Assembly: GCF_002761295.1 (NCBI RefSeq)
Contig: NZ_CP017881.1
Location: 1,289,069-1,353,068 of the forward strand
Length of the DNA: 64,000 nt
From: Methanohalophilus portucalensis
GTDB taxonomy: Archaea > Halobacteriota > Methanosarcinia > Methanosarcinales > Methanosarcinaceae
Direction of reading: 5' to 3'
Below are positions 11,352 to 13,906 of this stretch, piece after piece (the stretch's first letter is position 1; every line of letters starts with the position of its first letter). The notes below the pieces were generated by a model that made no database searches, was not told the DNA's origin, and saw only the letters and a program-made list of their open reading frames with translations. A program made the translations under genes and the position numbers.

Positions 11352-12632
11352 TTATGACATTTCCCCATATTCAGGTTTTTCAATTTTACCCATAAAAAGA
11401 ATACAGCCCGTTCTCTTATCTTCGATAAAGAACATGAATGGATGATCTGCCTTGAAATCGAATACCTCTCCTGGAGGCTTACTGTAAGCCATATCCTCTG
11501 CAGTTGCTGCTGCCGCCTCTGTGCCAGTTTCATTCACTTCAATGAATGTCTGATGAACAACATCATCTATTTTTAATGAGTACCCACGTGGCATTTTTTG
11601 GCTATCAAAGATTCCAGAGAAGTCAGCATTTTCTACATCAAAAGCATCAACAACTCCCATTTCAATTAATGGATCTGATAGTTTGGTTTTTGTTTCAAAT
11701 GTATACTTTGGTAACCAGATTCGTACATCCTGTCCTGGTTCCATGGTAGATTTGAGTTCATTATAATCAGAGAGAGTAAATTTATTTTCAAAATCTTCAA
11801 TGTTGTTTTTTTCAGGAAGAACAATGTACATGCTTAAATCTCTGCCTTTGTATGGAAGTTCGACGACTTTTGCATCTTTGTTTTCGCCATAACTGAAATA
11901 CTTCCATACATACATCATATCTACAAGAGTTCCTTCTTCGCTTGAAGATGAATTATAGAAGGGTTCTTTTTGCGTATCATCCACATCAAATTCAATGAGC
12001 CAGTTTCCTTTAAAGTAAAGTGTGTTTGTAATGATCATGTCTGTCCATTCAGGATTAATCATGTCATCTGAAATCAAATCCCTGATTTTACCATTGGTCT
12101 TTGTGGCGATCCATTCATTGATGATCTCTTGGGATTCTTCAGGTTCATTTCTAAAATCTACATTTGTTATTTTTCCACCATAGTAGGTTTCTGAGTTGTT
12201 TACAAACTTCTTATTCAGTGGATAATCATTCCGCACCCAGAGAGCATTTGCAGTTTCAAGACTATAATAGTCGCTATTAGAGTTGATCGTATCTACCATC
12301 TCTTTTGAACTCTCTTCAAGAACGGATTTGTTGAGAGGATAGTAACACGCATCTGACAACTGTTCTTTTGTGGAACCTTCAGCACCATCGTAGCAAATGG
12401 CCATTGTAGTGAAGATGCTATATGGTGAAAAAAAGATATTTTCATCTCCATTCTTAATCAGTGAATACATATCAAAAGCAAAAGCATTGTTTGCAGTTGA
12501 AATATCATAACCATTGACTGAATCTGTATTGATCGTGGTCTTTGTATTTACAGTTGAATCTTCAACACAACCTAGAAAAATCGATGAAATCATACATAAT
12601 GACACTAATATTGTAATTTTCAGTTTTTTCAT
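11352..12632 (-). CDS. Serpin, lipoprotein-anchored protease inhibitor
   Basis: 426 residues. Signal peptide with lipobox FLGC (Cys22), then a full-length serpin fold: NIFFSPYSIFTTMAICYDGA, the NTLYFKGNWLIEFD motif, a hinge TGTEAAAATA, and the C-terminal DHPFMFFIEDKRTGCILFMG. The alanine-rich hinge is that of inhibitory serpins; counting from it puts the scissile bond near MAYSKPP, roughly at Tyr-Ser-Lys. Serpins trap serine or cysteine proteases as suicide substrates. They are uncommon in archaea. ATG 12632 is chosen over the open frame to 12707 because the signal peptide begins there. Confidence 0.93.
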   Translation of the reverse strand: MKKLKITILVSLCMISSIFLGCVEDSTVNTKTTINTDSVNGYDISTANNAFAFDMYSLIKNGDENIFFSPYSIFTTMAICYDGAEGSTKEQLSDACYYPLNKSVLEESSKEMVDTINSNSDYYSLETANALWVRNDYPLNKKFVNNSETYYGGKITNVDFRNEPEESQEIINEWIATKTNGKIRDLISDDMINPEWTDMIITNTLYFKGNWLIEFDVDDTQKEPFYNSSSSEEGTLVDMMYVWKYFSYGENKDAKVVELPYKGRDLSMYIVLPEKNNIEDFENKFTLSDYNELKSTMEPGQDVRIWLPKYTFETKTKLSDPLIEMGVVDAFDVENADFSGIFDSQKMPRGYSLKIDDVVHQTFIEVNETGTEAAAATAEDMAYSKPPGEVFDFKADHPFMFFIEDKRTGCILFMGKIEKPEYGEMS

Positions 12633-12679
12633 AATATTTAGTAAATGTTTGTAGTATAAAGTTTTTATGATTTTCGCAC

Positions 12680-12765
12680 CGAACAAAAAAATATAGTTAT
12701 CGGACAAAACTGTGAATTATAGGGCACAATCCTGAATATTCGGACAAATCGATTTGAAGGACAAA
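12680..12765. repeat. Array of CGGACAAA-like repeats between serpin and dinB
   Basis: CGAACAAA at 12680, CGGACAAA at 12701, a weaker GGGCACAA at 12722, CGGACAAA at 12741 and AGGACAAA at 12758. Steps are 21, 21, 19 and 17 bases, about two helical turns, so the copies face roughly the same side of the DNA. They lie between the divergent serpin and dinB genes and look like an operator array. Confidence 0.45.
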
Positions 12766-12814: not shown

Positions 12815-13906
12815 ATGTCACGTATTGTTGTCCATGTGGACATGGACTACTTTTATGCTGCTGTTGAGGAGCGTGAAAACCCTTCCCTTATAGGCAGGCC
12901 TGTAGTGGTCTGCATGTATTCGGGTAGAGGGGAGCACGGGGGCTCGGTAAGCACCTCCAATTATACAGCCCGCGAATATGGTATTAAATCAGGTATGCCC
13001 TGTTCCAGAGCCATTAAACTGAATCCGGATGCGGTTTTTCTTCCTGTAAGAAAAGAGTTTTACACTGAAGTTTCTGACAGTATCATGGAAGTACTGCGCT
13101 TACATGCAGATAGTGATGAATCTTTTGAGCAGATAAGTATAGATGAGGCATTCATCGAAGTTACGGCAAACTGTAACGGTGATTTTGAATGTGCCCTTAA
13201 ATTGGGTGAAGATATTAAGCAAAAGATTCTGGAAAAAGAACAGCTTACATGTTCTGTGGGGATTGGGCCCAACAAACTCATTGCCAAAATGGCATCCTCA
13301 GAAAATAAACCCGATGGGCTTACTGTCATATCACAAAATGATGTAAACTCATTTCTGGAAGATCGGACTGCCTCTCAACTCTGGGGTGTAGGGGATGTCA
13401 CAGCCGCCAGGCTTGAAAAAATGGGCATAAAATCAGTGGGGCAACTTGCTTCTTCGGACATTGTGTCTCTCATAGATGCTTTTGGTAAAAAGAAAGGTTC
13501 ATGGCTCAAAAAGGCTGCATAGGGGATTGATGAGTCTCCTGTCAGGCAAAGGGAAGGAAGTGAGCAAATTGGCAGGATAGCCACTTTGCCGGAAAATTCA
13601 TCGGATCACGATTTGATAATGCCAGTTCTGGATAACCTTGCCGATGATGTGATTAAAAAGACCATCAAAAGAGGTGTTTCCTTCCGTCAGGTTACACTGA
13701 TTGTAATCACATCTGATTTCAAAACCCAAACTCGTAACCATACCCTCCAGAGAGCGGTTGCTGAAAAAGAAATTCTGAGGTCAAATCTGGATAAATTGCT
13801 AACAACCTTCCTTGAGGAAAACAAATTGGCCATTCGCCGGATTGGAGTTAGGGTTGCCGGGTTACAGGAAGTTTCATCTCAGACAACACTTGCTTCTTAC
13901 TTTTGA
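12815..13906 (+). CDS. dinB: DNA polymerase IV (Y-family, DinB) with in-frame TAG
   Basis: A 363-codon frame with one TAG at codon 236 (13520-13522). Residues 1-235 hold the palm, fingers and thumb: catalytic Asp9 (HVDMDYFYA, Tyr14 as the likely steric gate) and Asp110-Glu111 (SIDEAF). After the TAG the same frame continues with GIDESPVRQREGSEQIGR, the linker and little-finger domain, and ends in QTTLASYF, a PCNA-interacting (PIP) motif. No frameshift is needed. The usual residues at this position in the family are Asn, Arg or Gln. Read through, the enzyme is complete; stopped, it would lack the DNA-gripping domain and the PCNA contact. A TATA-like stretch near 12784-12792 suggests leaderless transcription. 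Confidence 0.85.
13520..13522 (+). other. In-frame TAG codon in dinB (codon 236)
   Basis: GCA-TAG-GGG in the dinB frame, at the junction between the thumb and little-finger linker. The frame upstream and downstream is the same, and both halves are conserved DinB sequence. Confidence 0.85.

What the first reader, a model, noticed from the sequence alone, without database searches (positions are those of the whole stretch)
12815..13906. DinB polymerase reads through an in-frame TAG at codon 236
Both sides of the TAG are conserved DinB sequence in one frame, down to a C-terminal PCNA-binding motif QTTLASYF. A pseudogene would be expected to decay after the stop, but no second lesion is seen in 127 downstream codons. 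The site lies in the linker before the little finger, where a bulky pyrrolysine would be tolerated. This would be a pyrrolysine protein outside methylamine metabolism, or a polymerase whose full-length form depends on UAG decoding and so perhaps on the methylamine state of the cell.
Basis: partly seen in the sequence, partly recalled or inferred. Interest (0 to 1): 0.8.

Follow-up and report, generated by a model that had tools for sequence, protein, structure and literature searches.

The report
DNA polymerase gene carrying pyrrolysine codon
In a salt-loving methane-making archaeon a DNA-repair polymerase gene has picked up a TAG codon in mid-gene; because this genus seems hardly ever to use TAG as a stop, the codon most likely just swaps one glutamine for the rare amino acid pyrrolysine, a probably harmless drift event rather than a broken gene or a switch.

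Summary
In detail: a 363-codon DinB (Y-family polymerase) frame at 12815-13906 (+) has TAG at codon 236 (13520-13522), with normal DinB sequence on both sides. The genome fits Methanohalophilus portucalensis. Four sister species have CAG there, so this is one C-to-T change. Of 112 Methanosarcinaceae genomes searched, no other listed DinB match has an in-frame TAG. Codon 236 is among the most variable positions of the protein and lies in the thumb/little-finger linker. The genome has the complete pylTSBCD set. In 464 kb sampled, 2 of 381 genes end at TAG, where intergenic sequence gives 19%, and both TAGs are internal to frames that relatives continue. M. mahii gives the same picture (10 of 690, none a convincing terminator). 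An unrelated GNAT acetyltransferase keeps an in-frame TAG in five intact species, with purifying selection after it. TAG is therefore read as sense, and DinB most likely carries pyrrolysine-236. Methylamine-gated DinB is unsupported. This is a new member of a known kind (drift of pyrrolysine into non-methylamine proteins). Early pseudogene or sequencing error remain minor rivals. No protein evidence exists for DinB.

The parts
12815..13906 (+). dinB, Y-family DNA polymerase (DNA polymerase IV type), 363 codons read through the TAG
13520..13522 (+). in-frame TAG, codon 236; CAG (Gln) in four sister species
12815..13519 (+). palm, fingers and thumb (235 aa): what would be made if the TAG terminated
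13523..13903 (+). linker, little finger (IMS_C) and C-terminal QTTLASYF, 127 codons after the TAG

Best explanation
Codon 236 of this dinB changed from CAG to TAG by one C-to-T transition in the lineage of this genome. Because tRNA-Pyl (CUA), PylS and the pyrrolysine-making enzymes are present and TAG hardly ever ends genes in this genus, the ribosome inserts pyrrolysine and makes a full-length 363-residue DinB with Pyl at a variable position in the thumb/little-finger linker. In effect it is a near-neutral Gln-to-Pyl missense change. Shown: the TAG, its private origin, the pyl set, the lack of TAG terminators, the variability of the site. Inferred: that DinB is expressed, that read-through at this TAG is efficient, and that the protein works.
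For: Relatives have CAG. Complete pylTSBCD: tRNA-Pyl with anticodon CUA and PylS, PylB, PylC, PylD above curated cut-offs. MtmB (two copies) and MttB of this genome carry in-frame TAG. Stops in 464 kb: TGA 199, TAA 180, TAG 2, with intergenic TAG 19.4% of stop triplets (chance about 2e-36 of none); the two TAGs are dinB and cofC, and in cofC four relatives have GAG and end at the same TGA. M. mahii: 10 TAG-ended of 690 genes, all apparently internal, including CAG-to-TAG in an acyl-CoA synthetase and a YyaL-like protein. A GNAT keeps TAG in five intact species with dN/dS 0.08-0.29 after it (Fisher p 0.0007 for one pair). Position 236 takes ten different residues among 50 relatives, entropy rank 315 of 363. 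A Pyl peptide of MttB was seen by mass spectrometry in M. portucalensis FDF1 (PMC4928046).
Against: No protein or transcript evidence for this gene. TAG not shared with any relative. The genome has a second, intact DinB, so loss would be tolerable. An archaeal release factor aRF1 is present and can compete; a reporter TAG in M. acetivorans was read through only 20-30% of the time (PMC2933860). Private substitutions on this branch (nine) are too few to test selection after the change.
Confidence: 0.77

Rival explanations
1. Early pseudogene: the TAG ends translation (or is read too poorly), a 235-residue core without little finger is made, and the gene is starting to decay while the second DinB covers the function.
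For: TAG is private to this genome; a second intact DinB exists; 5 nonsynonymous against 4 synonymous private changes is compatible with relaxed constraint; the M. profundi orthologue has a frameshift and a TAA.
Against: Almost no gene in the genus ends at TAG, so TAG is not an effective terminator here. Among 134 M. mahii genes compared in this genome no mid-gene TAA, TGA or frameshift break was seen; dinB was the only mid-gene interruption, and it is a TAG. M. profundi is a poor witness: 7 of 30 testable orthologues are broken in its assembly against none of 70 in M. mahii.
Confidence: 0.14
2. Sequencing or assembly error, or a mutation limited to the sequenced culture: the real codon is CAG.
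For: One base, one genome, and no second assembly of the species could be compared.
Against: The assembly is a single contig, 99.99% complete; of 134 M. mahii genes compared in it, 131 are intact, and the other three are dinB, one TAA at codon 6 and one TAG upstream of a plausible start.
Confidence: 0.06
3. Regulated two-product gene: the ratio of full-length Pyl-DinB to truncated core follows pyrrolysine supply and so methylamine availability.
For: aRF1 is present and read-through was partial in an M. acetivorans reporter (PMC2933860).
Against: TAG not conserved; loss of TAG terminators fits constitutive decoding, as argued for Methanosarcina and Ca. M. alvus in PMC4153887; RNA after the TAG folds little better than shuffles (z -1.3).
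Confidence: 0.03

Closest known systems
[quoted passage not shown] 2009, PNAS; seen here only as a cited title)
   Same: A TAG in a housekeeping nucleic-acid enzyme outside methylamine metabolism, explained by drift in a pyl-carrying methanogen.
   Different: Different gene; here in a genus where TAG terminators are nearly absent; no protein evidence yet.
Putative Pyl proteins of Ca. Methanomethylophilus alvus (16 beyond the methyltransferases, Cas1 among them; PMC4153887)
   Same: Strain-specific in-frame TAG in genes whose homologues lack it, with very few TAG stops (1.6%).
   Different: Other order; DinB not in the passages read; here the ancestral codon and site variability are resolved.
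Methylamine methyltransferases MtmB, MtbB, MttB
   Same: TAG decoded as pyrrolysine by the same machinery; a Pyl peptide of MttB was reported in M. portucalensis (PMC4928046).
   Different: There the Pyl codon is conserved and the residue sits in the active site; in DinB the site is variable and lies in the linker outside the catalytic domain.
'Archaeal genetic code with all TAG codons as pyrrolysine' (Kivenson et al., recalled from memory; not found in the library)
   Same: Archaea in which TAG is in effect only a sense codon.
   Different: Whether Methanohalophilus or this dinB is listed there could not be checked.

Membership tests
Y-family DNA polymerase, DinB / Pol IV type | IMS catalytic domain, thumb and little finger in one frame | tested here: met
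   IMS 151 bits, IMS_HHH_1 37.8, IMS_C 59.9, all above cut-off; NCBIfam DNA polymerase IV NF002677 289 bits, cut-off 256; Dpo4/Dbh structures E about 1e-70
Y-family DNA polymerase, DinB / Pol IV type | catalytic acidic residues | tested here: met
   D9, D110 and E111 invariant in 24 sequences; their catalytic role is general knowledge of the family
Y-family DNA polymerase, DinB / Pol IV type | polymerase activity and PCNA binding | not testable with these tools
   needs purified protein
Pyrrolysine-containing protein | organism has tRNA-Pyl, PylS and PylBCD | tested here: met
Pyrrolysine-containing protein | in-frame TAG with homologous sequence continuing in frame | tested here: met
Pyrrolysine-containing protein | TAG not generally used as terminator in the organism | tested here: met
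   2 of 381 sampled genes TAG-ended, both internal to frames relatives continue
Pyrrolysine-containing protein | TAG position conserved among relatives | tested here: not met
   CAG in four sister species; no other TAG among listed DinB matches of 112 genomes. Expected of drift cases, not of a functional Pyl; not a requirement for containing Pyl
Pyrrolysine-containing protein | Pyl residue shown by mass spectrometry | not testable with these tools
   no proteomic data could be searched
Pseudogene | further disabling lesions or loss of constraint after the first | tested here: inconclusive
   none found, but only nine private substitutions

The most novel reading that the evidence does not exclude
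DinB output in this strain is tied to pyrrolysine supply: with scarce Pyl-tRNA a 235-residue core without little finger is made, with plenty the full enzyme, so translesion synthesis and mutation rate would follow methylamine availability.
Probability: 0.04. Interest if true: 0.75.

Novelty: new member of a known kind. Interest (0 to 1): 0.45.

Why it matters
It is a clean example of how a codon freed from termination re-enters ordinary genes: ancestral codon known (CAG), one transition, a variable site, no metabolic role. With the sampled genes it indicates that Methanohalophilus reads TAG as a sense codon almost without exception, so standard annotation will truncate or label as pseudogenes a set of real proteins (dinB, cofC, a GNAT, a YyaL-like protein, CoA ligases, histidine kinases). 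A DNA polymerase with pyrrolysine would be unusual and is easy to test with one tryptic peptide.

Tried and rejected
Selection test on the branch with the TAG: too few private changes. First dN/dS run used unoriented loci for two species and was replaced. Special RNA structure after the TAG: little better than shuffles. M. profundi as evidence of dinB decay: rejected, its assembly is full of broken genes. Apparent TAA break in a ribokinase-like gene (L100): codon 6, a later ATG follows, so probably not a real break. TAG in L099 (codon 6): upstream of a plausible start. Stop usage in other genera from the flanks of dinB loci: too few genes to use. Literature: no mention of a Pyl DinB was found in the papers searched.

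Full report
What is there. The frame 12815-13906 (+) is a 363-codon DinB-type Y-family DNA polymerase with one in-frame TAG at codon 236 (13520-13522) and a terminal TGA. Read through, all domains lie in one frame: IMS 8-161, thumb 189-239, IMS_C 250-356, and it aligns end to end with Dpo4/Dbh chains. An AlphaFold2 model (mean pLDDT 91.6) puts the last thumb helix at 225-235 and the next strand at 252, so residue 236 opens the linker.

Where it is. The window lies in a 2,084,875-base single-contig genome. Its genus is Methanohalophilus: close relatives are named M. euhalobius, Methanohalophilus sp. RSK and M. profundi, and G004 has exactly the length published for M. mahii, 2,012,424 bases.

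Origin of the TAG. M. euhalobius, M. mahii, RSK and G002 (probably M. halophilus) all have CAG at codon 236. In a search of 112 Methanosarcinaceae genomes no other listed match has a TAG (the list is cut after the best matches); the only other stop-bearing orthologue is that of M. profundi. So a single C-to-T transition occurred on the branch to this genome. Position 236 is one of the least conserved of the protein: Ser, Ala, Gln, Leu, Val, Met, Asp, Thr, Asn and Arg occur among 50 relatives.

How this organism reads TAG. The genome has tRNA-Pyl with anticodon CUA, PylS, PylB, PylC and PylD side by side. Two MtmB genes and MttB have in-frame TAG. In 464 kb (window plus 20 stretches) 381 genes called by a simple codon score end in TGA 199, TAA 180 and TAG 2 times, although TAG makes up 19.4% of stop triplets between genes; the chance of no TAG end under that share is about 2e-36. 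The two are dinB and cofC. In cofC, four relatives have GAG at that codon and all run on to the same TGA. In 800 kb of M. mahii, 10 of 690 genes end at TAG. Three are methylamine methyltransferases; the others (acyl-CoA synthetase, two histidine kinases, a GNAT, a YyaL-like protein, an MtaA-like protein and one small uncertain gene) have continuations that look homologous in frame. This was tested by alignment to relatives for the CoA synthetase, the GNAT and the YyaL-like gene and by reading the translation for the rest. The CoA synthetase and the YyaL-like gene show the same CAG/TAG difference as dinB.

Selection past a TAG. The GNAT (Pfam Acetyltransf_3) keeps TAG at the same codon in five intact species, this genome included (G000:C1:1730261-1730800), and in a broken M. 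profundi copy. After the TAG, dN/dS between species is 0.08-0.29 (p 0.0007 for one pair). This is good evidence that protein is made past a TAG in a non-methylamine gene of this genus. For dinB itself no such test is possible: only nine other substitutions are private to this genome.

Rivals. A young pseudogene would look the same at the sequence level, and a second intact DinB (39% identical) would allow it. But TAG is not an effective terminator here, and among 134 M. mahii genes compared with this genome the only mid-gene interruption was the dinB TAG. The frameshift and TAA in M. profundi dinB carry little weight, since 7 of 30 testable genes are broken in that assembly. Sequencing error cannot be excluded without reads. 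Gating by methylamines is unsupported.

Comparison with the literature. A Pyl peptide of MttB was identified in M. portucalensis FDF1 (PMC4928046). Methanosarcina has 4-5% TAG stops and Ca. M. alvus 1.6%, the latter with 16 predicted Pyl proteins beyond the methyltransferases (PMC4153887). A drift case in tRNA-His guanylyltransferase is cited there. From memory, an archaeal code with all TAG as pyrrolysine has been published recently (Kivenson et al.); it is not in the library and could not be read. The dinB case is therefore a new member of a known kind.

Verdict. Observation confirmed. Pyrrolysine-236 in a full-length DinB is the most likely reading (0.77), arising by neutral drift, with no sign of a regulatory role.

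Noticed in passing
G000:C1:1730261-1730800 (L147) and L146, L148, L149, L150: GNAT acetyltransferase with an in-frame TAG conserved in five intact Methanohalophilus species and purifying selection after it; a stronger Pyl candidate than dinB.
   Followed up: partly
L088:4894-5538 (-): cofC with TAG at codon 210, shared with M. profundi; four other species have GAG and end at the same TGA.
   Followed up: yes
L116:15893-17572, L178:9931-11955, L107:16476-19169, L187:9653-11233, L175:10750-11217 (M. mahii): Further in-frame TAGs in M. mahii: acyl-CoA synthetase, YyaL-like protein, two histidine kinases, a nucleotidyltransferase-like protein.
   Followed up: partly
G002:C1:1524463-1526052: A second acyl-CoA synthetase-like gene with one in-frame TAG in another Methanohalophilus genome.
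   Followed up: no
G005 (M. profundi), e.g. L062: Many broken genes, and 11 of 175 gene calls ending at TAG in the sample; assembly errors or real decay.
   Followed up: partly
window 11352-12707 (-): Serpin-like protein divergent from dinB; DNA similarity to relatives stops at about 12770, just upstream of dinB, so the serpin side is not shared by the relatives compared.
   Followed up: no
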